Shown piece by piece: positions 23,575 through 60,918 of a stretch of 64,000 nt of DNA. The DNA lies in assembly GCF_000189635.1 (NCBI RefSeq), contig NW_002476559.1:1837654-1901653 (forward strand), in the 5' to 3' direction. This DNA is from Tetrahymena thermophila SB210. Its lineage: Eukaryota; Ciliophora; Oligohymenophorea; Hymenostomatida; Tetrahymenidae. Position 1 is the stretch's first letter. Each line of letters begins with the position of its first letter. Made by a program: the position numbers and the translations under genes. Under the pieces are notes generated by a model. The model made no database searches. It was not told where the DNA came from and saw only the letters and a program-made list of their open reading frames with translations.

Positions 23575-23645
23575 ATTTATTAAATAATATTATTGCAGTC
23601 TGTCTGATTTATTTGTTAATACACTTTTGAAATTCACTTAAGAAC

Positions 23646-35084: not shown

Positions 35085-35997
35085 ATAAAAAAAGTCTATC
35101 TATCTATTATAATTTATAAATATTACTTATATTATTTTATTTGTTAAATTCAGTATAAATTTCATAAATTTTAAATTAAAATAATAAACAAACAATTATT
35201 TTTTATTTATCAAACCTAAATAATAAATTTTAATATTTAAAAAAATAATAATTTACTGTAATTTAAAATATTACCTTCATAAAAAAATAAATATGAAGTG
35301 ATATGTGCTAATGTTTTAACATAGAGATTGAAAATTAATTTTTTCAGCTTAGAGCCTTAGAAGTTAGAAATTTTAAGGTATTTAATAACAATTTAGTATT
35401 TAAGTAATATAATTTTATTGAGTTTATAGAAAGATGCTAGATATTATTGAAAAAATATCAATAAATATTTTAGCATTTTCTATGTTTTTCTAGTAATAGC
35501 TTAATACATACTCTCATAAATTGAGCTCAATAAATTAATTTATTTTTTGGTTATTATTTATTTTGTAAATACTTTTGAAAGATAAAATTTATTTCGAGAA
35601 ATAAATTTTAGAAATTCTCGAAAGAAAGAAGCTGAATTTAAATATATTTGTATTGGAGGAATAAATATACTAAATTCTTTGAAAAATATATTTTCAAATA
35701 AAATGATCAATTGTACAGACAGACATACAAATAAACAAATAACTAACGATCATATATTAATATTTTATTTTTTAAAAATCTTTGAGATCAAATAAGGAAT
35801 TTAGAAATAATGTAAAACAAAAACAATGGTTATTTTAGTTCAATTTAATTTATTGTTTGAAAAAAGCTTAATCCTAAAGTATAAAAAATAATTGATTGAT
35901 AACTAAATCATTTAGTAATTTAAAAAAATTTTTGGATACCTTTTTTTTATAATTAATTTTAAAAGTGTATTAAGATAAAAACTAATTATTAATTCAA
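35085..35997. other. Intergenic spacer between tandem copies
   Basis: AT-rich spacer between copies 1 and 2 of the four-TM family. No gene seen; it presumably holds the promoter of copy 2. Confidence 0.6.
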
Positions 35998-37551
35998 ATG
36001 GGATCAAGTACAACAAAGAATAAAGTTGTAAATTTGTAGCAGGATTAGTCAGTAGAGCTTAATCCTATGTGTTAGGAATAAGATCTAGAAAAATCAAATT
36101 AGGAGAAATAAACCCCCAAAAAAAGCGGAACTTCTCTATGTTTAAAAAGACTCGTTACTGTAATTGTCTCTGTTGCTTTACTAATAGAACCTATTTATTC
36201 TACCTACATCTCTTACAAGGCATATAATAATTTTAACAATTTAAGCGACCAAATTAAAACAGAAGTTACTGATAGATATACTCAACTGATGATTTTAGAT
36301 ATTTCTGTTTCCTCTTCTTGTAATGCAGAGTGGGATACTTTATTCTTATGGATGTTCTAGGGAGCTAATATTAGGTGTGATTGCAGAGGAAAATTAGGTG
36401 ACAATATAACTCTTGATTTTTGTTCTCCTGATCAAGAAGCAGCTGGTTGCATTCAATTTAATTTTATTAATGAAAAAGTCTTGTCCTTATATCCTTCAGG
36501 ACCTAAAAACGATAATTCGACATAAATTTGCGTTAAGTAATATGTTGGAGGACCTACTTTTTCAACTATAAAATCTTGGAGTTAGAATTGTCCTAGTGGA
36601 TAAAGATTATGCGGAGGTTCTTCTATTGAGAGTTCAGTATGCATAGATAGTTCTTAACTATGCCCAATCAATTCTATAGTTGTTTAGCCTACAAATCCGG
36701 ATCCAACAATCTATCTTGAGCAATAATAGTACAATTCAACTCATAACATTTATTATAGTAGAACTAGTAATAACTTGCCTATAAACTACTATAAAGTTAC
36801 ATCAGGTGAGGGTCCTTGCTACAATATAACTTAGGAAAATACCTATTAAGGTAGAGTTGACCCTTTCAATTTTAAAGTACAGAGATCTCCTTGTGAAGTA
36901 GATCCTAGATGGTAAAGGGTAGCTGAAGTTGGAGAATATTCTTATTTTGTTGCTAGTGGGATAGACCCTCCAACATACTTCAAGGAAGTGTGGAGTTTCT
37001 ACTAAATAAGTGACATATATAGATATGGTTTCTATGTTTCTCACTACCCAGATTGGAAATTCAATAATAGAAATCTTATAAGCTAAGTAACTGATTTTGT
37101 AAATAATAGAGATAGTATTATGACCTATTAAACAACCCTTTTATATCTGAACGTAGCTAACCTTGTTTTAAATGGTTTATTTGCTTTCTACTTAACATAT
37201 ATATTAATAAAAAAAATGAGTGAAGAGGAGTAAGATAAATTGGTCTAGTGGAAAGACTATTACAATAACTTGATTAAGATTGGATAGCTAGCTGTGTGCA
37301 TTTTTTAGGTCCTTTCAATTGAAGACTATTTATAAACATTTAAGTAGTGCACAGTCAACTTAGTTTCAGACGAAAGGACAAATAAAATTTTGCTATCTGT
37401 TTATACTTATATGGATACCTAAGTTTATGAAGCAGATAAAAAGCTAATCATAAGTACTGCTGCAGGTTTTGCAGTGGCCATACTTGGATTTTTATTCAAT
37501 CTCTATTAAAAAAGAAAGAAACAAAAAGAAGAAGAGTAATAATAAGAATGA
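35998..37551 (+). CDS. Four-TM protein with Cys-rich ectodomain, copy 2
   Basis: Single exon, 517 aa, the same length as copy 1. The protein begins MGSSTTKN; Gly2 with Ser/Thr at position 6 fits an N-myristoylation signal, so the cytoplasmic tail may be lipid-anchored as well. Membrane segments are in the same four places as in copy 1. From about 36289 to 37140 the DNA is nearly identical to 33825-34680, including third codon positions, while the N-tail and the last membrane segments have diverged. That pattern suggests recent gene conversion. The C-terminus ends in a Lys/Glu/Gln-rich tail. Function unknown. Confidence 0.85.
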
Positions 37552-38897
37552 ACGTATAGATAGATATATATAAATCAATAAATTTTATTATAAATTATCA
37601 AAAATAACTTTGTATTATATTTTGTTTAGTAAATTGTGTATAATATAAACAAATATATTTTTTCTACATTTTGTAATTTCTTAATGTAATTTTTTATTTT
37701 TTCTCTAAAATAAAAGGTTTTAAAGATCAATTAAAAAAAATAAAATCAATTTCTATTAAAACGCAATGGATTATTTCATTTATGTTTCTGTTTTTTGGAT
37801 TAACAAAAAAAAACAAATAATTACCTAAATGAATATAAAATTAGAGGCTTTGAGAACAAATAAATTTCTTAAAAGAAATTCAAATAGCAGAATAAATAAA
37901 TTTAAGACTCGAATTTTAGGAAAAGGATTATTTTCTTTCAATTGTAAGCAAAAAACAAAACAGATGAATGATCAATCAACCAATTTTAATTAGCAATTAA
38001 GATTGTGGCTAATCACATATAAAAAGTAAATTTATATGTAAAAATTATTATTTATTTAGCAATTCTTAATAGGATTGAAGTAATTCTTAAAAAATGCTTT
38101 ATTTAAATCTAAATAAATATAATCTTGTCATTTTTAGTATTCAAATAAAAGCTTTAAAGTATATTTTTTTCAATAGAAAAATAAAGAATTTAAAAAAATA
38201 GAAAATCCTTTAAAAGAAATACTTAGTTAGTTAGAAAGATATTTTAAAGAATTTAATTATCTTGTGTAATTTGGAATCTTTAAGGAAACTATAATTGAAG
38301 AATAATGTAATCTAAATATTAGACAATAATTCAAAATGGAAATTATCGCCATAAATAATAATATTTTCTGATCAATTAATTAATTTCGAATCTAATTTTA
38401 AAAAAGCGAGTCAAGCAATTAAACATATGTAAGCTCCTATTATTATTTTAGGAATTTTAAAGGTAAACTTTAGAATTAAAATTGAATTTTTCATTTATGA
38501 AAAATAGAAATTAGTTTTTAATAAATAAATAGGTTAGACCATAGAATTTATTAGTTTGAAAGTGTCTTGCTATTTTGGTGATAGATATTTTGGATTGCGA
38601 ATAAAATAGCCTGCTATTAGTGTCAGTGAGATCAAATAAAAGTTCAATATATTTCTTTAATTTTCTTATTAATGAGAAAAAAGCCTTATTTTGTTTGCAT
38701 TTATTTCTAAGGAGAACAAATATAAATATTTAATAAATTCCTTTTGCTTGCTTGCATAATGAATGAATAAATTAATTGTCTTTGTTTTTACTATTAATAA
38801 CCTTTCAATCAATAAATTAATTAACTTAAACTATTTTGATCAATTATTCCACTTGAAATTACACAAAAATTAAGTCAAAAAAAAAGTTAAGTGTAAA
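37552..38897. other. Intergenic spacer between tandem copies
   Basis: About 1.3 kb of AT-rich DNA between copies 2 and 3. I see no coding region and no clear remnant of a fourth copy. Confidence 0.55.
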
Positions 38898-40454
38898 ATG
38901 GGAACAAAAGCATCTAAAAGTGACAATCAAATAAATGAATCTGTAGAATTAAACAGAGTATTCAACAATCAATAAAATTAAAATAATGATGAGGAATGTT
39001 ATAAAAGTAGAGTCATTTAACCTGCGGAACCTGTTATAGATGAAACAAAAACAGATTAGCCTTAGAAAGCCTCATGCTTTAAAAGAATTTTTACTATAAT
39101 TGTCATTATTGCAACGCTAGCAGAAGCAGTTTACTCTTTATATTAGTCCTATTAAGGATATAAAGGATTCGATAACTTGAACAACTAAATATAAGGAGAA
39201 GTTACTGATAGATATGGTTTTAGAATGCTGCAAGACGTGTAGTCTTCTTCTTCTTGTAACGGAGAGTGGGAACCTTTGTTTGAATATATGTTTCAAGGAA
39301 CAAATATAAGATGTGATTGCAGAGCATAAGGAGGAGAAATCACTGTTGATTTCTGTATGCCAGACTAAGTAAATTGTATTCAATACAACTTCTTAGACGA
39401 AAAAGTGCTGTCTGTTTGGCCTTTTGGTATTGATAATGGGCTTAAATAGTAGCTATGTGTTAAATATTACACTGGAAATACTTTTGCATCAATAAAAGAC
39501 TGGCCAACAACGTGTCCTAGCGGATAAAAAAAATGTGGAGGTTAATCAATAGAATCTATGCTTTGCTTACCTGAAGATTAATAATGTCCCTTAAATGACA
39601 TGATTGTAGCTTTAACAAACCCTGACCCTTCAATTTTCAATGAATAAATGGTTTTTAATTCTACTCATACTTTATTCTATACAAGATAAAGCAATAAATT
39701 ACCTTTAAACTTATCAAAAGTTACTTCTGGAGAAGGTCCTTGCTATGACGTGAAATAAGAAAACACATATCAAGGAAGAGAAGATTTTTTTACTTATAAG
39801 GTTAGGAGAACTCCATGTGAAGTAGATACTAGATGGTCTAGAATAGCAGAAGTAGGTGAATACACCTTATTTAAATCTAATGGAGTTGATCCCGAGGATT
39901 ATTTCAAATAAATGTGGAGTTTTGAACCTATTAGTGACTAATACAGATATGGTTTTTATGTGTCTCATTATCCTGACTGGAAATATGAATTTAGAAACTT
40001 ACTGCAAAAAATTACATAATTTGTAGATTCAAGAGATACAATTATGTAATATTAAAAAGTATTATTAGGCATATGTGCTCTTTCCCTAGGTTCTAATATT
40101 CTCATTGGTATAAGTATTATATATCTATATCTGACAAGTGCGGATGAAGAAAAAAAACAAAAGTTTGATAAACAAAAAGATGGTTTCTAAACAACTATAA
40201 AATTAGCCTAAATAGGTATTGCCGTCTTTCAACTGATAAATGTAAATGATTATATAGGTGCCTTTTAAAGTGCAGCAAACAATAAAGTTTCAGATAATAG
40301 ATCAAATACAATTATTACAGATATTGGAGATTATTTGCATAATAAAGTCTACATAGCTGACAGAAATCTTATCATAGGAAATGTTGTTGGATTATTCTTT
40401 AGTTTAATTTCTCTTATCTATACTATTTATTAAGCAAAAAAGAAACAACAATGA
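38898..40454 (+). CDS. Four-TM protein with Cys-rich ectodomain, copy 3
   Basis: Single exon, 518 aa. It begins MGTKASKS, again fitting an N-myristoylation signal. It keeps the family layout: first membrane segment near 66-85, a Cys/Trp-rich ectodomain with SSSSCNGEWEPL, RCDCRA and SGEGPCYD, then three membrane segments. It is clearly more diverged from copies 1 and 2 than they are from each other, at both protein and DNA level, so it escaped the recent homogenisation. The conserved Cys positions suggest the same disulphide fold. It faces the minus-strand LRR gene end-to-end at its 3' side. Confidence 0.85.
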
Positions 40455-40887: not shown

Positions 40888-43800
40888 TCAAAAGAAATAC
40901 ATTTTAAAAGCAACTAATCTTTTTAATTTAAGGCACTTTGCTTTAAATTATTTTAATTTCTCAATATCGTTGTCACTATTAATATAAATTAGTGTAAATT
41001 ACTAAAAAAATAAATAAAATATTTTTATATTAAATCAAAAATAATAAAGATGTTAACAAAATATAAAAAAGATAAATAAATAAAAAAAAATTAGATAATA
41101 AATAAATGAAAAGAGTTAGTTATATCGCTTAGAATTAATTTTTATATTCAAAAATATCACAATCCAAAATAAATAAATGTTTTTACCTTAGATCAAGTTT
41201 CAAATTTAGGAGATTAGTGCAATATCCTAAACCAGAAACTAAGCCTTATGCACCTTCATCATCTAATCCATTCATACTTTTTAAATATTGAAGAAAAAAT
41301 ATAAAGTTAATTAGTAAGTTAGAAACAAAAATGAATAAAAAATATGAAATAATAAGAAATTAATTAATAAAATTAAAACTTTAAAATGATAAAAATGAGT
41401 TAAATTAACAGACAAAGAAATAAAAAAAACGATCAAAATAAAATAAAAAAAAATAAATTAAACCTAATAAGTAAGTTAAATCAGTTAGTTATATTTTTTT
41501 AAATTAATTTTTATATTAAAAAAAATCACACTAAATAAATAAACTGTTTTTACCCTAGATTAAGTTTCAAATTTAGGAGATTAGTGCACTTTCCTAAACT
41601 AAAACCTAAGCTTGATGCCCCTATTGCACCAATTTAATTGTCCCTTTTTCAATATTGAAGAAAAAATATATAGTTAATTAGTTATTTAAAAAGAAAAAAT
41701 GAAGAAAAAATATGAAATGAATTAATAATAAAAGCAAAACTTGAAAATGAAAAAATGAGTTAAATTAATAAACAAAGAAACAAACAAATAAAAAATACAA
41801 GCAAAATAAAAAAAATAAATCAAATAAAAAGCTAATAAATAAATCATTAAAAACAGTTACTTACATTGTTTTAAATTCATTTTTATTTTGAAAAATATCA
41901 CAATCCAAAACAAATAAACTGTTTTTACCCTAGATCAAGTGTCAAATTTGATAGATTAGTGCACTTTCCCAAACCAGAACCTAAGCCCAATGCTCCAGCA
42001 CTAATTTTATTCATCCTTATTTAAAATTGAAGAAAAAATATATAGTTAATTAGTTGGTTAGAAGGAAGTATGAAGAAAAAATATGAAATAATAAGTAAGT
42101 AAGAAATGAATTTTGAAAAAATTATTTAAATTAAAAAACAAGCAAATAAATAAAAAATAAAAAGAAGAATAAAAATAGATCAAATAAAAAGCTAACAAAT
42201 AAATAAGTTAATACTGTTAGTTATATTATTTTAAGCTCATTTTTTATTCAAAAATATCATAATCCAAAACCAATAAATTTTTTTACCAAAGAACAAGTTA
42301 TAAATTCGAGAGATTAATGCATTTTGCTAAAGAAGAACTTAAGCCTGATGAACCTTTATCACCAATTTAATTTTCACTTTTTAAATTTTGAGAAAATAAT
42401 AGTTAATTAGTTAGTTAGAAGGAAAAATTGAAAAAAAATATGAAATAATAAAAAATGAATTTAATAGTTAAATAAAACTTGAAAATATAAAAATGAGTTA
42501 AGTTATAAGCAAATAAATAAATAAATATTACAAGAAGAATAAAAAAAAAGAAAAATAAATCAAATAAAAAGCTAATAATTAATTAAAGTAAAACAGTAAG
42601 ATTTATTATTTTAAATTCAAAAATATCACATTCCAAAACAAATAATCTGTGTTTACCCTAGATCAAGTTTCAAATTTAAGAGGTTAGTACACTTTGCTAA
42701 ACCATAAGCTAAGCCAGATGCACCTTCATCGCCAATTTTATTTTACCTTTTTAAATATTGAATAAAATATATAAAGTTATTTAGTAGAAGTAAAAAATAA
42801 AGAAAAGAAATTTAATAATAAGAATAGTATGAATAAATAATAAAAGTAAAACTTGAAAATTAAAAAATGAGTTAAATTAACAAAAAAACACAGAAATAAA
42901 TTAATTAAAAAAAATAAGCAGGATAAAAAAGGACAAATCAAATAAAAGCTAATAAATAATTTAAATCAGTTAGTTATATTATTTTAAATCAAAACGAATA
43001 AATTTTTTTTACTATAGATTAAGTGCCAAATTTGAGAGATTAGTGAATTTTGCTAAACAATAACCTAAGCCTGATGAACCTTCATTACCAATTTAATTTT
43101 CCCTTTTTAAATATTGAAGAAAATAATAGTTAATTAGTTAGTTAGTTAGTTAGTTAGTTAAAAGGATAAAATCAAAAAAAAAATGAAATAATTAAACAAA
43201 ACTAGAAAATATAAAAATGAGTTAAATTAACAAACAAATAAATAAATAAAAACAAAATTAATCAAATAAAAAGGTAATAAAAAATATAAGTTAAAACAGT
43301 TAGTAATATTATTTTAAATTCATTTTAATATTCAAAAATATCACAATTCAAAACAAATAAACTTTTTTTACTTCAGATTAAGTGTCAAATTTGAGAGATT
43401 AATGCACTTTACTAAATAAGAACCTAAGCTTGAAGCACCAATTGAACCAATTTTATTTTTCCTTTTTAAATATTGAAGAAAAAATATGAAATAATAAGAT
43501 ATGTATCATTGATAAATAATAAAGCAAAACATTATAATAGAAAAATAAGGTAAATTAAAAAATAAACAAAGAAATAAATCAATAAAAAAGCATGCAAAAA
43601 TAATAAAAAAAAGAAAATTAATCAATAAAATAAATTAATAAGTTAAAGCATTTAATAATATTATTTTATAATAATTTTTATATTCAAAAATATCACAATC
43701 CAAAACAAATAAACTGTTTTTACCTTAGATTAAGTGTTAAATTAGAGAGATTAGTGCACTTTCCTAAGCCAGAACCTATGCCTGATGCACCAATTGAACT

Positions 43801-46800
43801 AATTTGATTTAGCCTATTTAAATATTGAAGAAAATAAAAATAGTTAATTTGTTAGTTAGAAAGAAAAAAAAAGTTTATGAAATAATAAGATATAAATTTT
43901 TAATTAATAATAAAAGTAAAAATTCAAAATTCAAAAAGAAAAGATAAATTAAATTAAATTAGCAAGCAAGCAAGCAAGTAAGTAAGTAAACAAGCAAGCA
44001 AAGAAAGAAAGAAAGAAATAACAAACGCAATTACAGTAAAAAATTAAATTAAATTAGAAGCTGATAAATAAAAAAATTAAAATAGTTAGAGATATTATTT
44101 TAATTAATTTTAATATTCAAAAATATCACAATCCAAAACAAACAAACAAACTATTTTTACTCTAGAACAAGTACCAAATTTGAAAGATTAGTGCACTTTG
44201 CTAAACCTTAACTTAAACTTGATGCACCTCCGTCACCAATTTCATTACTACTTTTTAAATATTGAAGAAAAACATAAAGTTAATTAGTGAGTTAGTAGTT
44301 AAATAAGAAGAAATGTTATGAAATTAATTAATAATAAATAAAAAAAGCAAAACTTGAAAATATAAAAATGAGTTAAATGAATAAACAAATAAATAAATAA
44401 ATAAAAACCACAAAAAAAATAAATAAATAAATCAAATAAAAGCTAATAAATATATTAGTTAAAGCAGTTAGTTATATTATTTTAAATTCATTTTTATATA
44501 CTAAAATATTACAATCCAAAACAGATAAATTGTTGTTACCTTAGTTTAAGTGTCAAATTTAAGAGATTATTGCAGTTTCCTAAAGAAGAACCTAAACCTG
44601 AGGCACTAATTGCACTAATTTGATTTAGCCTTTTTAAATATTAATAGTTAATTAGTTAGTTAAAATGAAAAAAAATATATCAAATAATAAGAAATGGATT
44701 ATCTAATTAACAATAAAAGCAATACTTGAAAATGAAAAAATGAGTTAAATTAGAAAAAAGAAATAAATAAATAAAAAAAGCACAAAAAAAAAAATACAGT
44801 TAGTTATACTGTTTTAAATTCATTTTTATATTCAAATATAGAGGTGGGAATCGATTCAAAATAATAGATAAACTGATTATATAAAAACTCGATTATTTTT
44901 TAATAGCATAAGTTTTGATAAATTTTGAGGATGGATATGGGAGGGGTATGGTATTATGAAACATATGATATAAATATATTGTAAAGATTATTTTATTAGT
45001 TAAAATAAAATGTCTTTTCTATAAAATTAAATTAAAAAGAAAAAAATAATGTAATAAAATATTTTTTAATAATATATTGAAATAGTTTTTAATTTAATAA
45101 AATGGATTTTAATTTTGATATCGCTTCAAAAATAGAAAATTGAATCGATCAAAAAATATATTCGATTTCTATTCAAAAATATCACAATCCAAAACTATTA
45201 AACTATTTTTACTCTAGAACAAGTCTCAAATTTGAGAGGTTAGTACACTTTCCTAAACCAAAACTTAAGCTTTATGCACCTTCATCACCAATTTTATTTT
45301 CACTTTTTAAATATTGAAGAAAAAAAAAAAAAGTTAATTAGTTAGTTGGAAAAAATGAAGAAAAAATATGAAATAATAAGAATTTATGAATTAATAAATA
45401 ATAAAAGCAAAACTTGTTAATGTTAAAATGAGTTAAATTAACAAACAAATAAAAAAAAGAAAAAAAACATCAAATCTAATAAATAAATAAATAAGTTAAA
45501 GCAACTAGTTATATTATTTTAAATTCATTTTTATATTCAAAAACATCACAATCAAAACATACAAACTATTTTTACCTTAGATTAAGGTTCAAATTTGAGA
45601 GATTAGTGCACTTTCCTAAACCAGAACCTATGCCTGATGCACCAATTCCGCCAATTTAATTTTTCCTTTTTAAATATTGAAGAAAAATTAAGAGTTAATT
45701 AGTTAGATAGAAGGAAAAAATGAAAAAAAATTTGTGTTTTTACCCTAGATTTAGTGCCAAATTTGAGAGATTAGTGCACTTTGCTAAACCAGAAACTATG
45801 CCTGATGCACCAGTTGGGTCAATTTAATTTCTCCTTTTTAAATATTGAAGAAAAATAAAGATTTAATTAGCTATTAAAAGAAAAAATGAAGAAAAAATTT
45901 AAATAATATGAAATGAATTAATAATAAAAATAATAATTCAAAATCAAAAAATGAGTTAAATTAAAGAAATAAATAAATAATTAAAAAGCACAAGAAAAAA
46001 AAAATAAATAAATCAAATAAAAGCTATTAAATAAATAAGTAAAAGCAGTAGTTATATTATTTTTATATTTAAAAATATCACAATCCAAAACAAATAAACT
46101 ATTTATACCTTAGATTAAGTGTCAAATTTGAGAGATTATTACACTTTCCTAGACCAGAACCTAAGCCTGATGCACCAATCGCGCCAATTTAATTTTTACT
46201 TTTTAAATATTGAAGAAAAATTAAGAGTTAATTAATTAGTTAAAAGGAAAGAATGAAGAATAAATATGGAATAATAAAAAAAATGAAATTCTAAATAAAA
46301 GCGAAAATTTAAATGAAAAAATTAGTTAAATGAACAAACGACAAACAAATAAATTAATAAATAAATAAAAAAGACACCAGCAGAATAAAAAAAAAAAAAT
46401 TAAATCAAATAAAAAGCTAATAAAAAAATATTAGTTAAAACAATTAATTATATTTTTTTAAATTCATTTTTAGATTCAAAAATATCATAATCCAAAACAA
46501 ATAAACTGTTTTTACCTTAGATCAAGTGTCAAATTTGAGAGATTAATCTAATTTCCTAAACCATAACTTAAGATTAATGCGCCTTCATCATCTATATTAT
46601 TTTTCCTTTTTTATATTGAAGAAAAAATAAACAGATAATTTGTTAATTCGAAGGAAAAAATGAAGAAAAAATGCAAAACAAAAAATAAATAATAATCTAT
46701 ATAAAAATTGAATGATAATTAATTTAAAATAATTAAATGATATCTCTCTAAATAAAATAAAGATTAATAATATTAACAAATCAAATATACTTACTTATTT

Positions 46801-46945
46801 TCCAGATTAATATGGAGAACCTAAAGCGATTAAAATGAAGTGCTAAAAAACTTTTGTTGTCAATAAATATAAATTGAAATAATATTAATAAAAAGTAAAT
46901 ATTTACTTCTTTTAGATTGTTAAAATATTATTTCTATTATATCAT
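40888..46945 (-). CDS. Leucine-rich repeat protein, one repeat per exon, downstream copy
   Basis: An 18-exon gene giving 509 aa. Exon 1 is 46907-46945 (MIQQKQYFNNLKE) and exon 2 is 46795-46850 (LQVLHINLEN). Fifteen repeat exons follow: 46516-46605, 46109-46198, 45744-45833, 45576-45665, 45213-45302, 44540-44629, 44161-44250, 43724-43813, 43372-43461, 43013-43102, 42657-42746, 42287-42376, 41929-42015, 41554-41643 and 41187-41276. The last exon, 40888-40975, ends in TGA. Repeat exons are 90 bases (one is 87) and all share phase 2, so each encodes one LRR: N-x-IG-x-x-GASGLGSGL, then KCTNLSNLTLDL, close to the ribonuclease-inhibitor type. No stop or frameshift occurs in any of the 15. No signal peptide or membrane segment is seen. 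It is probably a cytoplasmic binding scaffold; the partner is unknown. Confidence 0.82.
43961..44018. repeat. AAGC/AAGT/AAGA tetranucleotide tract in an LRR intron
   Basis: A purine-rich tetranucleotide run inside the intron between the repeat exons at 43724-43813 and 44161-44250. It explains why that intron is longer (347 bases) than its neighbours. Confidence 0.75.
44839..45171. mobile_element. hAT-like MITE candidate inside an LRR intron
   Basis: A 333-base insertion that matches no other intron in the array. It begins TAGAGGTGGGAATCG, which resembles hAT-type transposon ends, and its other end read inward begins TAGAAATCGA, a shorter imperfect inverted match. The bases just outside are TTCAAATA and TTCAAAAA, a near-perfect 8-base target duplication as hAT elements make. 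It has no coding capacity, so it would be non-autonomous. Being in an intron it does not touch the coding sequence. Confidence 0.5.
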
Positions 46946-47215
46946 TTGTTTTATTTTATTTTTCAAAAATGATGACTATCAATTTATGCAAATTTAATTA
47001 ATTATAAATATATTGATAAATTAATTAACTTTTATATCAATATAAAAAAACACAAATAAATTTTAAAAATTATTAACGATGACTATTTTTTAAAATTGCA
47101 AAGTGCTATATATTTTAGGTTAATTTATCTGATTACAGTATATTAAAATATGAAACATATTATATTAAAGTATTCAAATATATTTATATTTATTGGCCTT
47201 ATCACCACTTATTTT

Positions 47216-50200
47216 TCATATAAAATACATTTTAAAATTAACTAATCTTTTTAATTAAAGGCATTTTGCTTTCAATTATTTTAATTTCTCAATATTGTTG
47301 TCGCTATTAATATAAATTAGATTAAATTACTAAAAAAATAAATAAAATATTTTTATTTTAAATCAAAAATAATAAAGATATATAAAAAATAAAAAAAGAT
47401 AAATAATTCAAAATAACTAGATAATAAATAAATGAAAAGAGTTAGCTATATCTTCAAATTAATTTTTATATTTAAAAACATCACAAATCAAAATAAATAA
47501 ACAGTTTTTACCCTAGATCAAGTTTCAAACTTAGGAGATTAGTACACTTTCCTAAACCAGAAACTAAGCCTGATGCACCTTCATCATCTATTTCATTCAT
47601 TCTTTTTAATTATTAATGAAAAAATATAAAGTTAATTAGTAAGTTAAAAACAAAAATGAAGAAAAAATATGAAATAATAAGAAATTAATTAATAAAATTA
47701 AAACTTTAAAATGAGAAAATGAGTTAAATTAACAGACAAAAAAATAAATAAAAAAACAATCAAAATAAAATAAAAAAATAAATCAAATTAAACCTAATAA
47801 GTAAATGAAATCAGTTAGTTTTTTTATTTTAAATTAATTTTTATACTCAAAAAAATATCAATCCAAAATAAATAAACTGTTTTTACCCTATATCAAGTTT
47901 CAAATTTAGGAGATTAGTGCACTTTCCTAAACCAGAACCCAAGCCTAATGCCCCAATAGCATTAATTTAATTGTCCCTTTTTAATGTTGAAGAAAAAATA
48001 TATAGTTAATTAGTTATTTAGAAGGAAATAATGAAGAAGAAATATGAAATAATAAGAAATTAATTAATAATAAAAGCAAAACTTGATAATGAAATAATGA
48101 GTTAAATTATCAAACAAAGAAACAAATAAATAAATAAAAAATACAAGCAGAATAAAAAAAATAATTCAAATAAAAAGCTAATAAACAAATCAGTAAACAC
48201 AGTTAGTTACATTATTTTAAATTCATTTTTATTTTGAAAAATATCACAATCCAAAACAAATAAACTGTTTTTACCCTAGATGAAGTGTCAAATTTGATAG
48301 ATTAGTGCACTTTCCTAAACCGGAACCTAAGTCTGATGCACCAGCACTAATTTCATTCATCCTTTATAAATATTGAAGAAAAAATAAAGAGTTAATTAGT
48401 TGGTTAGAAGGAAATATGAATAAAATTTATAAATAATAAAAAATGAATTATGAAAAAATTAGTTAAATTAACAAACAAGCAAATAAATAAAAAATAACAA
48501 GAAGAATAAAAAAAGAAAAATAAATCAAATAAAAAGCTAATAAATAAATAAGTTAAACTGTTAGTTATATTATTTTAAACTCATTTTTGAATTCAAAAAT
48601 ATCATAATCAATACTAATACATTTTTTTTACCATAGGTTAAGTGTCAAATTTGAGAGATTAGTGCATTTTGCTAAACAAGAACCTAAGCCTGATGAACCT
48701 TCATCGCCAATTTAATTTTCCCTTTTTAAATATGGAAGAAAATAATATTTAATTAGTTAGAAGGACGAATTGAAAAAAATATATGAAATAATAAAAAATG
48801 AATTTAATAGTTAAATAAAATTTGAAAATATAAAAATAATATAAATTATAAGCAAATAAATAAATATTACAAGAAGAATAAAAAAAAAGAAAAATAAATC
48901 AAATAAAAATCTAATAATTAATTAATGTAAAACAATAAGATTTATTATTTAAATTCATTTTTAAATTCAAAAATATCACAATCCAAAATAAATAATTTTT
49001 TTTACCATAGACTAAGTTTCAAATTTGAGAGATTAGTGCATTTTGCTAAACAAGAACCTAAGCCTTATGAACCTTCATCGCCAATTTAATTTAATCTTTT
49101 TAAATGTTGGAGATAATAATATTTAATTAGTTAATAAAATGGAAAAATTGAAAAAAATATATGAAATAATAAAAAATGAATTTAATAGTTAAATAAAACT
49201 TGAAAATATAAAAATCAGTTAAATTATAAGCAAATAAATAAATAAATATTACAAGAACAATAAAAAAAAAGAAAAATAAATCAAATAAAAAGATAATAAA
49301 TAATTAAAGTAAAGCAGTAAGATTTATCATTTTAAATTAATTTTTAAATTCAAAAATATCACAATCCAAATCAAATAATCTATTTTTACCCTAGACAAAG
49401 TGTCAAATTTAAGAGGTTTTTTTGTCCAAAATCTATTAAAAAAGGGAGGGGTGTAAAAATGAACCTAGCAGGCGTGGCAGGCGTGGCATGCTTGTGCTTA
49501 GTGAACTTAGTGAACTTAGACTGTAAAATATGAAATTTCTTAAATTCATATGTAAAGCATATAAAAAGAAAAAGAAAAAATAAAAACACTTAATAAATAC
49601 ATAATAATATAAAGAAAAATATATAAAAAAATTATAATGAAAAAAAAAAATAAAATAAAATAAAATATAATTAATTTTAAGATGTATTCTGAGTGCATTT
49701 ATATGTGCGAGTATTTCTATTCTATTCTATCACCAATTTTATTTTTCCTTTTTAAATATTGAAGAAAAAATGTCAAATTATTTAGTAGAAAAAATATACA
49801 AAAATAAGAAAAGTATGAATAAATAATAAAAGCAAAACATGAAAAGCAAAGAAATAAATAAATTAAAAAACACATGCAGGACAAAAAAAGGAAAAATCAA
49901 ATAAAAGCTAATAAATAAATAATTTAAACCAGTTAGTTATATTATTTTAAATTCATTTTTATGTTCAAAAATATCATAATCCAAAACAAATATACTATTT
50001 TTACTCTAAATGAAGTGTCAATTTTGAGAGATTAGTGCATTTTGCTAAGCAAGAACCTAAGCCTGATGAACCTTCATCACCAATTTAATTTACCCTTTTA
50101 AATATTGAAGAAAATAATAGTTAATTAGTTAGTTAGTGAGAAGGAAAAATTGAAAAAAAATAAATTTAGTAGTTAAATAAAACTTGAAAATATAAAACTG

Positions 50201-53200
50201 AGTTCAATTATAAGCAATTAAATATTACAAGTTGAATAAAAAAAAAAGCTAATAATTTATTAAAGTAAAACAGTAAGATTTATTATTTTAAATTAATTTT
50301 TAAATTCAAAAATATCACAATCCAAAACAAAATCTGTTTTTACATTAGATAAAGTGTCAAATTTAAGAGGTTAGTACACTTTGCTAAACCAGTAGCTAAG
50401 CCTGATGAGCCTTCTTCACCAATTTTATTTTTCCTTTTTAAATATTGAAGAAAAAATATAAAGTTATTTAGTAGAAGCAAAAAATAAAGAAAAAATATGT
50501 AATAAAAAGAAAAGTATGAATAAATAATAAAAACAAAACTTGAAAATAAAAAAATTAGTTAAATTAACAAAAAAAAAGAAATTAATTAGTTAAAAAAAAC
50601 AACCAGGATAAAAAAAGGACAAATCAAATAAAAAGTTAATAAATAAATAATTGAAAGCAGTTATTTTTTTTATTTTAAATTCATTTTTATATTCAAAAAT
50701 ATCATAATCCTAAACGAATAAACTGTTTTTACCCTAAATCAAGTGTCAAATTTGAGAGATTAGTGCATTTTGCTAAACAAAAACCTAAGCCTGATGAACC
50801 TTCATCACCAATTTAATTTTCCCTTTTTAAATATTGAATAAAATAATAGTTAATTAGTTAGTTAGTTAGTTCGAATTAAAAATTGAAAAAAATATGAAAT
50901 AATAAAAAACGAATTTAATTTTTAAATAAAACTTGATAATATAAAAATAAGTTAAATTAACAAACAAATAAATAAATAAAAACAAAATCATAAAAAGCTA
51001 ATAAAGATATTAGTTAAACAGTTAGTATTATTATTCTAAATTAATTTTAATATTCAAAAATATCCCAATTCAAAACAAATCAACTTTTTTTACCTTAGAT
51101 CAAGTGTTAAATTTGAGAGATTAGTGCACTTTAATAAATCAGAACCTATGCCTGATGCTCCTTTATAACAAATTACATTTTTACTTTTAAATATTGAAGA
51201 AAAAATAGATAGATAATTAATTATTTAGCATGAAAAAATGAAGAAATACTATGAAATAATAAGAAATGTATTAGAAATAAATAATAAAAGCAAAATATGA
51301 AAATATAAAAATAAGGTAAATTAAAAAATAAATTTACAAATAAATAAATAAAAACACAAGCAGAATAACAAAAATGAAAATTAATCAATAAAATCAAATA
51401 TATTAATAAGTTAAAGCATTTAGTTTTTTTTAATTTTTTATTTTCAAAAATATCGCAATCCAAAACAAATAAACTATTTTTACCTTAGATTAAGTGTTAA
51501 ATTAGAGAGATTTGTATACTTTCCTAAGCTAGAACCTAAGCCTGATGTACCACTTGCACTAATTTGATTTAACCTTTTTAAATATTGAAGAAAAAATTAA
51601 AAAGTTAGTTATATTGTTTTAATTCATTTTAATATTCAAAAATATCACAATCCAAAACAAACAAATTATTTTTACTCTAGAACAAGTTTCAAATTTGAGA
51701 GATTAGTGCATTTTGCTAAACCAGAACTTAAACCTAATGCACCTCCATCACCAATTTCATTTATTCTTTATAAATATTGAAGAAAAAATAAAGAGTAAAT
51801 TAGTTAGTTGGAAAACATGAAGAAAAAATTTGAAATAATTAGAAATGTATGAATTAAAAAATAATAAAAGCAAAACTTGAAAATGTAAAATTAATTAAAT
51901 TAACAAACAAATAAAAAAATAAAAAACATAAGCAGAATAAAAAAAGAAAAATAAATAAAATAAAATATATTAAATAGATAAATAAGTAAAAGCAACTAGT
52001 GATATTATTTTAAATTCATTTTTATATTCAATAATATCACAATCCAAAACAAACAAACTATATTTACCTTAGATTAAGTGTTAAATTTGAGAGATTATTG
52101 CACTTTCCTAAGCCAGAACCTATGCCTGAAGCGCCAATTGCTTCAATATAATTTTACCTTTTTAAATATTGAAAAAAAAATAAAGAGTTAATTAGTTATT
52201 TGAAGGAAAAATGAAGAAAAAATATATTTTTTTACCCTATATCAAGTGTTAAATTTGAGAGATTATTGCACTTTCCTAAGCCAGAACCTATGCCTGAAGC
52301 GCCAATTGGGCCAATTTAATTTTCCCTTTTTAAATATTGAAAAAAAAAAAATAAAGAGTTAATTAGTTAGTTAGAAGGAAAAAATGAAGAAAAAATAAAT
52401 GTTTTTACCCTATATCAAGTGTTAAATTTGAGAGATTAGTGCACTTTGCTAAACCAGAACCTAAGTCTGATGCACCAATTGCACTTATTTTATTTCTCCT
52501 TTTTAAATATTGAGAAAAAATAAATAGTTAATTAGCTAGTTAGAAGGAAAAAATGAAGAAAAATATGAAATAAAATGAAATGAATTACTAATAAAAAGAA
52601 AAATTCAAAATGAAAATGAGTTAAATTAAAGAAATAAATAAATAAAAAACTCAAGAAAAAAAAAGAAAAATAAATCAAATAAAAGCTATTAAATAAATAA
52701 GTTAAAGTAATTAGTTATATTATTTTAAATTCATTTTTATTTTCAAAGATATTACAATCTGTTACAAATAAACTATTTTTACCTTAGATTAAGTGTCAAA
52801 TTTGAGAGATTATTGCACTTTCCTAAACCAGAACCGATGCCTGATGCACCAATTTTTCCAATTGCCCTAATTACCTCAATTTAATTATTCCTTCTTACAT
52901 ATTGAAGAAAAAATAAAGAGTTAATTAGTTAGATAGAAAGAAAAAATGAAGAAAAAATATGAAATAATAAAAAATGAAATTATAAATAAAAGCAAAAATT
53001 TTAATTGAAAAAATGAATTAAATTAACAAATAAACAAAATAAATAAATAAATAAAAAACAATAGCAGAATAAAAATAATAAAATTAAATCAAATAAAACG
53101 CTAATAAAAAATTATAAGTTAAAACAATTAGTTATATTGTTTTTAAATTAATTTTTGAATTCAAAAGTATCATAATCGAAAACAAATAAACTCTTTTTAC

Positions 53201-53625
53201 CTTAGATCAAGTGTCAAATTTGAGAGATTAATGCACTAGCCTAAACCATAACTTAAGATTAATGCATCTTCATCACTAATATTATTTTTTCTTTTTAATA
53301 TTGAAGAAAAAATAAAGAGATAATTAGTTGGTTAGAAGGAAAAAATGAAGAAAAAATGTAAAGTAAAAAATAAATAATCATCTATAATTGAATGATAATT
53401 AAAATAAAATAATTAAAAACTATGTGTATAAATAAAATAAAAATTAGTAACACTAATAAATCTAATATACTTACTTATTTTCCAGATGGATATGGAGAAC
53501 CTAAAATGATTAAAGTTAAGTGCTAAAAAACTTTTGTTGTCATTAAATATAAATTGAAATAATATAAATAAAAAGTAAATATTTACTTCTTTAAGATTGT
53601 TAAAATATTATTTCTATTATATCAT
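47216..53625 (-). CDS. Leucine-rich repeat protein, one repeat per exon, upstream copy
   Basis: Paralogue of the gene at 40888-46945, 270 bases away in the same orientation. Exon 1 is 53587-53625, exon 2 is 53475-53530, and the last exon is 47216-47303. Sixteen repeat exons are intact: 53201-53290, 52783-52890, 52409-52498, 52236-52325, 52068-52157, 51676-51765, 51484-51573, 51094-51183, 50733-50822, 50344-50433, 50005-50094, 49006-49095, 48632-48721, 48275-48361, 47887-47976 and 47512-47601. A seventeenth (49390-49747) is broken by an insertion. Leaving it out gives a continuous 545-aa frame; including it brings an in-frame TGA at 49546-49548. The exon at 52783-52890 has 18 extra bases, in frame. 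The protein is the same kind of LRR scaffold as its neighbour. Confidence 0.75.
49390..49747 (-). pseudogene. LRR exon destroyed by a 0.3 kb insertion
   Basis: The acceptor-side 17 bases and donor-side 29 bases of a normal repeat exon remain, but the middle (about 44 bases) is replaced by about 312 bases of foreign sequence. The insert holds a G-rich motif, two copies of GGCGTGGCA in a row, three copies of an ACTTAGTGA-like word and a TATTC run at one edge. The interrupted exon is 358 bases, not a multiple of the repeat length, and reads into TGA at 49546-49548. Both splice sites survive, so whether the cell skips or retains it must be decided from RNA. Confidence 0.7.
49419..49730. mobile_element. 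Insertion of unknown type in an LRR exon
   Basis: About 312 bases with no counterpart in any sister unit. It is compositionally distinct at one end (GC-richer around 49465-49500, with short direct repeats). I see no convincing terminal inverted repeats or target duplication, and its edges are defined only by loss of similarity. It does not resemble the hAT-like element at 44839. It could be a transposon remnant or filler DNA captured during break repair. Confidence 0.4.
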
Positions 53626-54962
53626 TTGTTTTATTTTATTTTTCAAAAATATTGAATATATAGCAATTTATGGAAATTTAATTAATTAATTATAAATATA
53701 TTAATAAATTAATTAACTTTTATTTCAAATTAATTCAGACAAAAAGAAAAATAAATTTTAAAAATTATCAAATACAAATTAAAAAATATTGTTTTAGGAA
53801 GAGAAATCACAAAAAAGCTAAAAGTTAAAGTAAAATTAATTTTATTAAATCTTAATATTTCTATTAAAAATTTGTTTTTTCTTATAAAACTAGTAAGAAT
53901 CAAAAACGGGTATTCATATGTTGATAAATTCTATTTATTAATATACTTAAATTTTTATCAAACAATTTAAATATATTGTATATTTAGGTTTTAGTCCATT
54001 AATGAAGTGAATTTAAATACATTTAATACAGATATCATTAAAATTTTTTGAAAGAAATAAATCGATCAAAAATTAGAATTAGTTACTAGATACAAATATT
54101 AGTTATTTAATATTTATTTATTGATTGATAAAGAATATTATTCTAAGTAAATTTATATCAATCTTTATAATTAATTTTTCAATCAAATTTTTAATTAATT
54201 TTAGACTTTTTTTATAATTTTTAACAAACAAATCTTAATTAATTTTTAAATTTAAATAAAATTTATGGTATATTAATATTTTATGAAGTTAATTTCAATT
54301 TTAACTTTTTTAGGAAACAATAATAATAAACACACTATCACTATCTGAGAAGAAAATTTTTGTTTATTTTGAGAATTACTATTTTAATATATTTTCAAAC
54401 TTATTTGCATGGAATAACATCAAATTAAGTGTAAACTTTTTAAAAAATATCTCAAAATTTTTTAATAATTAAATTTGTCTATTTATCAGATTTTTTTTTC
54501 TTTTGAAAGATAGTTTTGTTGAGAAAGTTGCTCTATAAACTTTTAAGCTTTATATTTTAGATTATATTATTAAATTTATTAATTTAACTTGGATTTACTT
54601 TAAAATTATTTCTAATTTGAATTTAGAAAGTAAAAGAAAAGGATTCTATGACTTTTCCTTAAATCTTCTTTCGGAATTCATAAAAGCAGTATTAATTTAT
54701 ATATTCACTAATAGATTCTTTCTTTCTTTCTTTATTTATTTCTGACAACTAAATATACAATCGTGAGAAAAGAAATGAAATCTAAATAAGTTTTTTTTTG
54801 AATTTATTTGTTGTTTTAGTTAAAAGAATAGTAAAAGGAATTCATTCATTTGTTCATTAATTGTAAAGCCTTTAAATAATGATCAAACTTTTTTATAAGT
54901 ATTATAAATAATTTAATAAATACATTTAAAACAAATCAAAAGATTAAAAATCGAATAAAGAA
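53626..54962. other. Intergenic region between divergent genes
   Basis: AT-rich spacer containing the promoters of the upstream LRR gene (minus) and the cysteine protease (plus). The first 130 bases match 46946-47080, i.e. the 5' flank of the other LRR gene. A TTTC run lies at 54717-54732. No other gene seen. Confidence 0.6.
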
Positions 54963-56132
54963 ATGAGAATTACTTTTGTATTTTTATTGGCAATGCTAGG
55001 TGTTAGCATGGCCATAATAAACCAGAATTTCCATTATAATTCTACGAAGTAGTTGAATTTGACTTAAGTTAAATAGCTTTTCTCTAAATTCAAAGCTGAA
55101 CACAAGAAATTCTATAACTTTTTAGAAGAACAAAGGCGCTTTGAAATATTTAGATAGAATTTAGACATAATTTCCGAACTGAACTAAGTCGAAGAAGGCA
55201 CTGCTGAATATGGAATCACTTAGTTTTCTGATATGACAACAGAAGAATTTAAATCATAAATTTTAATTCCTTCTACCTATGCTAGAAACTTCACTGGTTC
55301 TAGATACCATGGATTCTAAAAAATTTCATAAGATGCTCCCACTTCTTACGATTGGCGTGATCATGGAGCTGTTACTCCTGTTAAGAATTAGGGTACTGTT
55401 GGTACTTGTTGGACTTTCTCAACAACTGGTAACATTGAAGGCTAATGGTTCTTGGCTGGTAATCCTTTAGTTTCTTTGAGTGAAGAACAAATTGTTGATT
55501 GTGATGGTTCTTAAGAACCTTCTACAGGTCATGCAGATTGTGGTGTTTTTGGTGGATGGCCTTATCTTGCCTTTGATTATGTTATTAATGCTGGTGGCCT
55601 TCCTTCAGAAGAGACTTATCCCTACTGCGTTGGTAATGGAGGTTGTTACCCATGTCCTGCTCCTGGATACAATGAAACTTTATGTGGACCTGCAGTTCCT
55701 TATTGCAACGCTACTGCTTACCCTTGCAGACAAGGATAAGTTCCAATTGCAGCAAAAATTGAAGACTGGAAGGCTTTATCCAAAGATGAAGACTCTATTA
55801 AGCAATAACTCTTTGAAATAGGTCCTCTCTCTGTTGCTCTCGATGCTTCTTATCTATAATTTTACAAAAAAGGTATTTCTGCACCAAAATTCTGCTCTAA
55901 GACTACCCTAAATCACGCAGTTCTTTTGACTGGTTATGGTATTGATAATGGTGTTGAATTCTGGAATGTCAAGAACAGTTGGGGAGCTAAATGGGGAGAA
56001 TAAGGTTATTTCCGTCTAAAAAGAGGTGTTGGAATGTGTGGTATTAATACTTAAGTTGCTACTGCAATTGTTAGCAAGTAAGCTTACTCTGAAAAGTTTA
56101 TGGAATATGAAGATTATGAACAACCATATTGA
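54963..56132 (+). CDS. Papain-family cysteine protease (cathepsin L-like), secreted or lysosomal
   Basis: Single exon, 389 aa, a preproenzyme of clan CA family C1. Residues 1-18 form a signal peptide ([17 protein letters not shown]). An I29-type inhibitory propeptide follows, with an ERFNIN-like motif ([17 protein letters not shown]) near residues 62-78. The mature enzyme starts near residue 125. The catalytic Cys is at 149 in [10 protein letters not shown], where most papains have GSCWAF; the oxyanion Gln is seven residues upstream; the catalytic His is at 318 ([10 protein letters not shown]) and Asn at 338 (KNSWG). Extra Cys-rich sequence around residues 215-255 is longer than in animal cathepsins. 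Ciliates secrete many such proteases or use them in phagosomes. All catalytic residues are present, so it should be active. Confidence 0.93.
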
Positions 56133-60530: not shown

Positions 60531-60918
60531 GAAACATTATGGCTAATGCTGAATTTTAGTTTAGAAAATTAAACTATTTATTCAAATTAATGAATAACAG
60601 AAACAATTAGGCCTTAAGTTAGTTATCTTTAAGCACTTTTAATCTAAATCCACAATATTTTTAAGTATTTTACAACTAACATTTTAATTATGACGCACAC
60701 TAATAATTTAAGATTATAAATGAATTTATGGTAAAAATGAACTTGTACACTATGAAAATTAAATTATTGATTAAAATAATGAATAATAGAAACAAAATTG
60801 CTTTATCTTATCTTTGAGTACTTTTTAATAATTCACGATATTTTTAAGTATTTAGCATCTTATATTCAAATTTTGGCAATAATAATTTAAGGATTTTAAA
60901 TGAGTTTCTGGTAAAATT
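60531..60918. repeat. Diverged tandem duplication, about 190-base unit
   Basis: Two similar segments share ATGAATAA.AGAAACAA, a TATTTTTAAGTATTT block and an AATAATTTAAG block in the same order. Similarity is moderate and the boundaries are approximate. Confidence 0.5.

What the first reader, a model, noticed from the sequence alone, without database searches (positions are those of the whole stretch)
40888..53625. A satellite-like region is really two genes built from one-repeat-per-exon LRR cassettes
About 12.7 kb looks like degenerate tandem DNA with no long open frame, so gene finders that use the standard code or demand long ORFs would miss it. On the minus strand every roughly 370-base unit contains a 90-base exon bounded by good splice sites, encoding one leucine-rich repeat. 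All exons have identical phase, and summed exon lengths give continuous frames of 509 and 545 codons with matching start and end exons. Growth by duplication of intron+exon units produces a protein whose repeat number can change without frameshift.
Basis: partly seen in the sequence, partly recalled or inferred. Interest (0 to 1): 0.82.

Follow-up and report, generated by a model that had tools for sequence, protein, structure and literature searches.

The report
Two one-repeat-per-exon LRR genes, Tetrahymena
The repeat-like stretch is two neighbouring genes of the ciliate Tetrahymena, each built from about fifteen near-identical exons that each encode one leucine-rich repeat; this gene type is already published, but one copy carries what looks like a retrotransposon remnant that tends to sit at the same point of such exons.

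Summary
Confirmed, with corrections. The region holds two minus-strand genes of the Tetrahymena thermophila SB210 somatic genome, read with the ciliate code: gene 1, 46945..40888, 18 exons, 499 aa; gene 2, 53625..47216, 19 exons, 536 aa. Of 31 intact repeat exons 28 are 90 bp; every intron after the first is phase 2. The frame is protected (1 gap event in exons, 52 in introns), but overall dN/dS is near neutral; scaffold codons are clearly conserved. The architecture is that of the 90-bp-exon, phase-2 group III LRR genes of Xiong et al. 2019 (PMC6564038), so the core is known. New here: the broken exon carries a tail that fits the Tt.REP retrotransposon. In 98 of 104 genomic copies examined the tail follows an LRR exon start, 18-19 nt into the exon in 93 of the 98. 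This suggests site-specific insertion into a coding exon, tolerated because losing one exon keeps the frame.

The parts
46907..46945 (-). gene 1 exon 1 (39 nt, MIQQKQYFNNLKE), ends phase 0
   Evidence: length 39 in 40 of 40 genomic copies
46795..46820 (-). gene 1 exon 2 (26 nt, VLHINLEN), ends phase 2
46516..46605 (-). gene 1 repeat exon 1 (90)
46109..46198 (-). gene 1 repeat exon 2 (90)
45744..45833 (-). gene 1 repeat exon 3 (90)
45576..45665 (-). gene 1 repeat exon 4 (90)
45213..45302 (-). gene 1 repeat exon 5 (90)
44540..44629 (-). gene 1 repeat exon 6 (90)
44161..44250 (-). gene 1 repeat exon 7 (90)
43724..43813 (-). gene 1 repeat exon 8 (90)
43372..43461 (-). gene 1 repeat exon 9 (90)
43013..43102 (-). 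gene 1 repeat exon 10 (90)
42657..42746 (-). gene 1 repeat exon 11 (90)
42287..42376 (-). gene 1 repeat exon 12 (90)
41929..42015 (-). gene 1 repeat exon 13 (87)
41554..41643 (-). gene 1 repeat exon 14 (90)
41187..41276 (-). gene 1 repeat exon 15 (90)
40888..40975 (-). gene 1 end exon (88 nt, to TGA; cap KCLKLKRLV)
   Evidence: similar cap at the C-terminus of P0002, P0034, P0070
53587..53625 (-). gene 2 exon 1 (39 nt)
53475..53500 (-). gene 2 exon 2 (26 nt)
53201..53290 (-). gene 2 repeat exon 1 (90)
52783..52893 (-). gene 2 repeat exon 2 (111: 21 nt longer, in frame)
52409..52498 (-). gene 2 repeat exon 3 (90)
52236..52325 (-). gene 2 repeat exon 4 (90)
52068..52157 (-). gene 2 repeat exon 5 (90)
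51676..51765 (-). gene 2 repeat exon 6 (90)
51484..51573 (-). gene 2 repeat exon 7 (90)
51094..51183 (-). gene 2 repeat exon 8 (90)
50733..50822 (-). gene 2 repeat exon 9 (90)
50344..50433 (-). gene 2 repeat exon 10 (90)
50005..50094 (-). gene 2 repeat exon 11 (90)
49729..49747 (-). 5' remnant (19 nt) of a broken gene 2 repeat exon
49419..49728 (-). insert of about 310 nt in the broken exon (far end uncertain by a few A); its end next to the 5' remnant is repeated in the genome
49671..49728 (-). 58-nt conserved tail, proposed Tt.REP 3' tail (element antisense to the gene)
49390..49418 (-). 3' remnant (29 nt) of the broken gene 2 repeat exon
49006..49095 (-). gene 2 repeat exon 12 (90)
48632..48721 (-). 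gene 2 repeat exon 13 (90)
48275..48361 (-). gene 2 repeat exon 14 (87)
47887..47976 (-). gene 2 repeat exon 15 (90)
47512..47601 (-). gene 2 repeat exon 16 (90)
47216..47303 (-). gene 2 end exon (88 nt, to TGA)

Best explanation
Two paralogous Tetrahymena thermophila group III LRR genes, side by side. Shown: each has a short two-exon start (39 + 26 nt), an array of 15 or 16 intact repeat exons of 90 bp (or 87/111), and an 88-nt end exon, read with ciliate code 6; each repeat exon gives one LRR of about 30 residues. Inferred: the product is an LRR solenoid that binds some ligand, probably on its concave face; where in the cell it sits was not tested. Because repeat exons are multiples of three and the introns around them are phase 2, units can be gained by unequal crossing over or lost without breaking the frame. 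Gene 2 seems to show one such loss: a retrotransposon remnant, most likely the tail of the non-LTR element Tt.REP, sits 19 nt into one repeat exon, so that two introns and the broken exon can be spliced out as one 909-bp intron and the frame goes on.
For: Gene models, splice sites and phases. Code 6 reading: 17 and 15 in-frame TAA/TAG in the first models, no in-frame TGA against shuffle means of 11.0 and 11.5. Frame protection: 1 gap event (21 nt) in 1431 aligned exon columns against 52 in 3465 intron columns, 39 of them not multiples of three. Genome sample: 241 of 253 units outside the window have exon length divisible by three and 232 are exactly 90; 0 of 275 exons have an in-frame TGA against a simulated mean of 56. 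LRR_6 hits at E 2.1e-28 (gene 1) and 9.2e-11 (gene 2). Scaffold codons w 0.19-0.29 against about 1.0 in neutral simulation. Family in the same genome: 1922 matches of a 33-mer with up to 3 mismatches, 0 in the control. Species: six contig lengths equal those given for T. thermophila SB210 proteins. Literature: PMC6564038, abstract and sections 9, 10, 11, 15, 24, 27.
Against: No transcript evidence could be used. Nucleotide identity of exons (84.8%) is hardly above introns (84.1%) in the global alignment, made with the older start model, and below them in unit-wise alignments (exons 82.5% with gap columns counted, about 83.7% without, by my arithmetic; introns 85.7% without). dN/dS between the two genes is 0.77 in repeat exons, and the wrong frames give 0.68 and 1.17. 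Strand-exposed codons evolve about as neutral simulation predicts. So one or both genes could be young and under weak constraint. Skipping of the broken exon is inferred: a 75-nt phase-2 alternative exon (49464-49390) is also open.
Confidence: 0.93

Rival explanations
1. The two arrays are recent pseudogenes or unexpressed copies of group III LRR genes, carried as repeat-rich DNA, with open frames only because they are young.
For: Exon identity is no higher than intron identity to speak of; dN/dS 0.77 in repeat exons, not distinguishable from wrong frames; one repeat exon broken in gene 2; no near-identical protein of comparable length listed.
Against: At about 15% divergence the introns collected 52 gap events and the exons one, of 21 nt; by my arithmetic about 16 frame-breaking gaps were expected in the exons and none is seen. 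The GT/AG splice sites and both end caps are kept.
Confidence: 0.06
2. A non-coding satellite whose LRR-like reading is a by-product of ancient coding origin.
For: Tandem units of 350-375 bp with no long ORF under the standard code.
Against: The one exon gap is a multiple of three; 0 of 275 sampled exons with in-frame TGA; scaffold codons strongly conserved.
Confidence: 0.01
3. For the broken exon: the tail spread by exon shuffling or gene conversion from one or a few original insertions, so the constant junction is shared descent rather than insertion specificity.
For: PMC6564038 reads the tail-bearing introns as a clade and shows extensive ectopic recombination of these exons; 36 of 98 tail-bearing flanks are closest to another tail-bearing flank; a 98% identical copy of nearly the whole insert occurs at C110:60622-60925.
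Against: 36 of 98 is close to the 32% expected from the pool; 13 of 34 copies with long loci have as nearest flank an intact unit of their own locus; 75 distinct six-residue exon remnants among 98; several kinds of terminal short repeat at the junction.
Confidence: 0.3

Closest known systems
[quoted passage not shown] 2019, PMC6564038)
   Same: Exons of exactly 90 bp in long arrays, phase 2 introns, one LRR per exon, introns of a few hundred bp with nucleotide-level repeats inside the gene, variable exon number between paralogs, REP remnants in some members.
   Different: Nothing in kind. Introns between repeat exons here are mostly 249-347 bp (paper's main peak about 257 bp). I add the two-exon start, exons of 87 and 111 bp, and a remnant inside an exon rather than an intron.
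Tt.REP non-LTR retrotransposon (Fillingham et al. 2004, not held, not read; described in PMC6564038)
   Same: Conserved tail of about 54-58 nt, more than a hundred tail copies in the somatic genome, tight association with LRR units.
   Different: The paper speaks of LRR introns as favoured targets; here the junction lies at a nearly constant point of the exon. The published tail sequence could not be compared.
Site-specific non-LTR retrotransposons such as R1 and R2 in rDNA (recalled, no call)
   Same: Constant 3' junction in a multicopy gene family.
   Different: The target here would be a protein-coding exon of a family with over a thousand genes in this species (1,500 LRR genes with a 90-bp exon, PMC6564038 section 10).
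Plant NLR and receptor LRR genes, animal NOD-like receptors (recalled; PDB sequence match to 5irl and 5irm, there named uncharacterized protein)
   Same: LRR sequence, large and fast-changing family.
   Different: No Pfam family other than LRR models was found in these two products; no immune function shown.

Membership tests
Tetrahymena group III 90-bp-exon LRR genes | At least three consecutive exons of exactly 90 bp | tested here: met
   12 consecutive in gene 1 and 11 consecutive in gene 2
Tetrahymena group III 90-bp-exon LRR genes | Phase 2 introns flanking the 90-bp exons | tested here: met
   16 of 17 and 17 of 18 introns are phase 2; the exception is the first intron, which does not flank a repeat exon
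Tetrahymena group III 90-bp-exon LRR genes | Exons encode LRRs | tested here: met
   LRR_6 above its cut-off in both proteins
Tetrahymena group III 90-bp-exon LRR genes | Masked by one of the eight published consensus repeats | tested here: inconclusive
Tetrahymena group III 90-bp-exon LRR genes | Long introns, main peak about 257 bp | tested here: met
   Most introns between repeat exons are 249-347 bp; four of 78-102 bp and those of 583 and 909 bp are exceptions
Tetrahymena group III 90-bp-exon LRR genes | Pericentromeric or subtelomeric place in the micronucleus | not testable with these tools
   Only the one assembly, which looks somatic, is held
Tetrahymena group III 90-bp-exon LRR genes | Spliced expression | not testable with these tools
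   No RNA data
Tt.REP tail | Conserved sequence of about 54 nt with about 169 copies in the somatic genome | tested here: met
   58 nt conserved; 115 matches of a 33-mer with up to 3 mismatches, 145 and 172 first-look candidates of which 40 each were scored
Tt.REP tail | Sequence identity with the published tail | not tested
   Fillingham et al. 2004 is not held and no micronuclear sequence was available
Tt.REP tail | Element body with reverse transcriptase next to the tail | tested here: inconclusive
   One RVT_1 match in the assembly, on C134, which is not among the 100 listed tail places; PMC6564038 says that most of the element is eliminated from the macronucleus

The most novel reading that the evidence does not exclude
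The Tt.REP-like retrotransposon inserts site-specifically, in one orientation, 18-19 nt into the 90-bp coding exon of the LRR family (often after codons for N-Q-I-G-D), again and again. The LRR array is a safe haven for it: equal-phase exons of a multiple of three let the cell splice out the broken exon with its neighbouring introns, so an insertion in coding sequence costs one repeat and not the gene. The retrotransposon and the exon cassette would then drive each other's spread and change of repeat number.
Probability: 0.55. Interest if true: 0.6.

Novelty: new member of a known kind. Interest (0 to 1): 0.36.

Why it matters
It shows that raw-sequence reading can recover real genes for which no near-identical protein of comparable length was listed in a large protein collection, and it gives exact models for two of them. 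The wider value is the insertion pattern: if the retrotransposon picks one point of a coding exon, the published association of REP with LRR genes gets a mechanism (target choice plus frame-neutral exon loss) that can be tested by mapping REP copies in the micronuclear genome. The selection result, scaffold codons held and strand-exposed codons about free, fits a family kept for its fold while its surface drifts or diversifies.

Tried and rejected
Rejected: (1) the 155-nt single start exon used (529 and 566 aa). The 40 genomic copies show a 39-nt exon and an intron of varying length. Searches used the older gene 1 protein (the older gene 2 protein too), and the older start; gene 2 was searched again with the final model and both final proteins were scanned. 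(2) Positive selection at exposed codons: naive w 1.41 for non-scaffold codons and 1.35 for codons 1, 3, 26, 28 looked like it, but neutral simulation with the intron substitution spectrum gives 1.15-1.20 for the exposed codons and 1.62-1.75 for the rest, so it is not shown. The ratios of dN to intron divergence are biased, because pairs were chosen by intron similarity, and I do not use them. (3) dN/dS between the two genes as proof of coding: it fails against wrong-frame controls. (4) Off-frame TGA counts among the sampled exons reflect shared ancestry and are not used as evidence. (5) Reverse transcriptase next to a tail: one match only, elsewhere. (6) Literature on exon-specific non-LTR elements: four papers listed, none on Tetrahymena by title.

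Rows dropped or not seen: one search counted 115 tail places and listed 100; 104 copies, all with up to 3 mismatches in the 33-mer, lay in the loci fetched, so 11 of the 115 were not examined. The exon start was sought only within 75 nt upstream of the tail and on one strand. Six of the 104 did not reach the exon-start score: two at 17 look borderline, four show no exon start; about 4% of shuffled segments reach the threshold. The start-exon set is the 40 copies scored of 500 candidates. In one search a pattern failed on two rows (L018, L136), which were counted by alignment columns instead. In one search, 17 exon pairs were aligned, and introns only where neighbouring exons were paired in both genes and lengths differed by no more than 80 nt. 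In one search exon pairs of unequal length were left out. Searches left out loci that repeat the window (L005, L010, L011, L022, L030) and two others (L009, L158). One search gave no exons outside the window through an off-by-one error of mine and was replaced. The protein searches scored only the 7990 and 7987 candidates sharing most words.
Full report
What is there. On the minus strand, 53625 to 40888, the window holds two gene models of the same build. Gene 1 (46945-40888): exons of 39, 26, 12 x 90, 87, 90, 90 and 88 nt, 499 aa. Gene 2 (53625-47216): exons of 39, 26, 90, 111, 11 x 90, 87, 90, 90 and 88 nt, 536 aa. Donors are GTAA or GTAT and acceptors AAG or TAG throughout. The first intron is phase 0; the others are phase 2. 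The genes need the ciliate code: the first models held 17 and 15 in-frame TAA/TAG codons, and the window has no ORF of 150 aa or more under table 11.

The start. Forty copies of this start from the same genome, the window's two included, show otherwise: 39 nt from the start codon to a GT in 40 of 40, ATG in 39 of 40, then 82-90 nt with lengths not in steps of three, an AG in 35 of 40, and then a short stretch that reads V-L-H-I-x-L in 17 of 40 and close variants in most others. So the start is a 39-nt exon, an 86-nt intron and a 26-nt exon. Annotated relatives begin in a similar way (P0007 MIQQNQYFDDLKD, P0001 MIQQNKYFYSLED), and the end exon resembles the C-termini of P0002, P0034 and P0070.

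Whose genome. The window lies at G000:C17:1837654-1901653, in a 101.0-Mb assembly of 445 contigs. Six contig lengths of this assembly (73992, 131984, 243475, 63615, 31828 and 1868686) equal those given for proteins of T. thermophila SB210, labelled macronuclear. I take it to be the T. thermophila somatic genome.

Is it coding. Yes for the frame. Aligned unit by unit, the exons of the two genes have one gap event (21 nt) in 1431 columns and the introns 52 in 3465, 39 of them not multiples of three; by my arithmetic about 16 frame-breaking gaps were expected in the exons. There is no in-frame TGA in either gene against shuffle means of 11.0 and 11.5. In a sample from the loci fetched, 241 of 253 repeat units outside the window have an exon length divisible by three and 232 are exactly 90, and 0 of 275 exons contain an in-frame TGA, where simulated substitutions give a mean of 56 (range 43-76). 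Less so for amino acids: exon identity (84.8%) is hardly above intron identity (84.1%) in the global alignment (older start model), and unit by unit it is lower (exons 82.5% with gap columns counted, about 83.7% without; introns 85.7%). dN/dS between the genes is 0.77 in repeat exons; the two wrong frames give 0.68 and 1.17. Among nearest exon pairs of the genome sample it is about 1 overall. Split by codon class, the ten scaffold codons have w 0.29 (235 nearest pairs) or 0.19 (196 pairs chosen by flank), against about 1.0 in neutral simulation. Codons 1, 3, 26 and 28 have 1.35 against 1.15-1.20, and the rest 1.18 against 1.62-1.75. So the scaffold is conserved, the middle class is mildly constrained, and the exposed positions run at about the neutral rate; positive selection is not shown. 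Calling codons 1, 3, 26 and 28 strand-exposed rests on recalled knowledge of LRR folds. The sample was picked in part by a 21-nt motif in codons 21-27, which favours conservation there.

What it is. The products match Pfam LRR_6 and, by sequence, LRR proteins of known structure such as 9y6s, 5irl (a NOD-type protein by my recollection) and 7ju4 (radial spoke protein 15) (older gene 1 model). The architecture is that of the group III 90-bp-exon LRR genes of Xiong et al. 2019 (PMC6564038; abstract, sections 9, 10, 11, 15, 24, 27 and passages seen): arrays of exactly 90-bp exons, more than 98% phase 2 introns before them, 934 group III genes in T. thermophila, growth by exon shuffling. Among proteins of 0.55-1.75 times the length no near-identical record was listed for either gene (the best-scoring hits have 39-65% identity over 42-98% of the length), so they may be missing or differently modelled in public annotation; fragments and a merged model were not tested.

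The broken exon. Between repeat exons 11 and 12 of gene 2 a further repeat exon begins at 49747, runs for 19 nt, is interrupted by about 310 nt of other DNA that also replaces its middle, and resumes for its last 29 nt. The end of the insert next to the 19-nt remnant is a dispersed repeat: 58 nt are nearly invariant among the copies aligned, and a 33-mer from it has 115 matches with up to three mismatches in the genome, 0 in the control. Length, copy number and company fit the conserved 54-bp tail of the non-LTR retrotransposon Tt.REP, of which PMC6564038 counts 169 copies in the somatic genome, tied to LRR genes. I could not compare sequences: the source paper is not held.

The junction. Of 104 copies examined (of the 115), 98 have an LRR exon start just upstream, on the same strand as read from the tail (about 4% of shuffled segments reach the same score). 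In these 98 the tail starts after 19 exon nt in 78, 18 in 15, 16 in 3, and 22 or 23 in 2. The remnant often reads x-N-Q-I-G-D; 75 different six-residue remnants occur among 98. Exons with GA at nt 17-18 are more common among targets (71 of 98) than among intact exons (153 of 275; Fisher p 0.004), though the search string itself contains GA there. Short terminal repeats between exon and tail vary (mostly GAATA units, also GGAAT, TGAAT, GAAT, GGAAAT and GAT), as is usual for 3' ends of some non-LTR elements (recalled). Nearest flanks are tail-bearing in 36 of 98, where 32% is expected from the pool (98 tail-bearing, 209 intact), and in 13 of 34 copies with long loci the nearest flank is an intact unit of the same locus. 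Recurrent insertion at one exon position explains this best; spread by shuffling of a few insertions remains possible, because recombination in this family is intense. PMC6564038 describes the targets as LRR introns; the words insertion site, target site, site-specific and target-primed do not occur in its main text, and my searches found no other paper on the point. Fillingham et al. 2004 could not be checked.

How it works, as far as inferred. Every intact repeat exon is a multiple of three and lies between phase 2 introns, so any whole number of units can be gained or lost. A broken exon can drop out as part of a longer intron (909 bp here), which costs one repeat and keeps the frame. That would make the array a tolerated target for the element. 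Skipping itself is not shown: a 75-nt open phase-2 exon (49464-49390) is an alternative. Function of the proteins is unknown; binding of varied ligands, as PMC6564038 suggests for bacterial recognition (section 27), is a guess.

Noticed in passing
44939-44946 and 49444-49451 (also 9255-9262): The C-rich string CCCCTCCC occurs three times in the window (0.02 expected); two of the three lie in the two abnormally long introns of gene 1 (583 bp) and gene 2 (909 bp). On the other strand this is a purine tract (in gene 2 preceded by six A), like the A5G5 tracts said to set excision boundaries of eliminated sequences (PMC6698652, passages). It may mark places where micronuclear DNA was excised.
   Followed up: partly
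44850-45180: Extra DNA inside the 583-bp intron of gene 1, not like the other introns; only weak partial matches elsewhere in the genome (four besides itself).
   Followed up: partly
G000:C110:60622-60925: A 98% identical copy of nearly the whole gene 2 insert (query 1-309 of 311) sits at the same exon position in another LRR unit with different flanks; either a short mobile unit in its own right or the same excision product.
   Followed up: partly
33204-40454 (+): Three similar reading frames in a row (code 6), 551-626 aa, sharing motifs such as RYGFYVSHYPDWK; membrane proteins by eye only; no Pfam match.
   Followed up: partly
54621-56132 (+): Papain-family cysteine protease with I29 propeptide (Peptidase_C1 E 1.1e-63), next to gene 2.
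   Followed up: yes
23631-25505 (+): TLDc-domain protein (E 5e-40).
   Followed up: yes
52783-52893, 48275-48361, 41929-42015: A repeat exon of 111 nt (21 nt longer, in frame) and a pair of 87-nt exons at corresponding places of both genes: frame-neutral size changes inside the 90-bp rule.
   Followed up: partly
60564-60937: Tandem duplication of about 180 bp, outside the LRR region.
   Followed up: no
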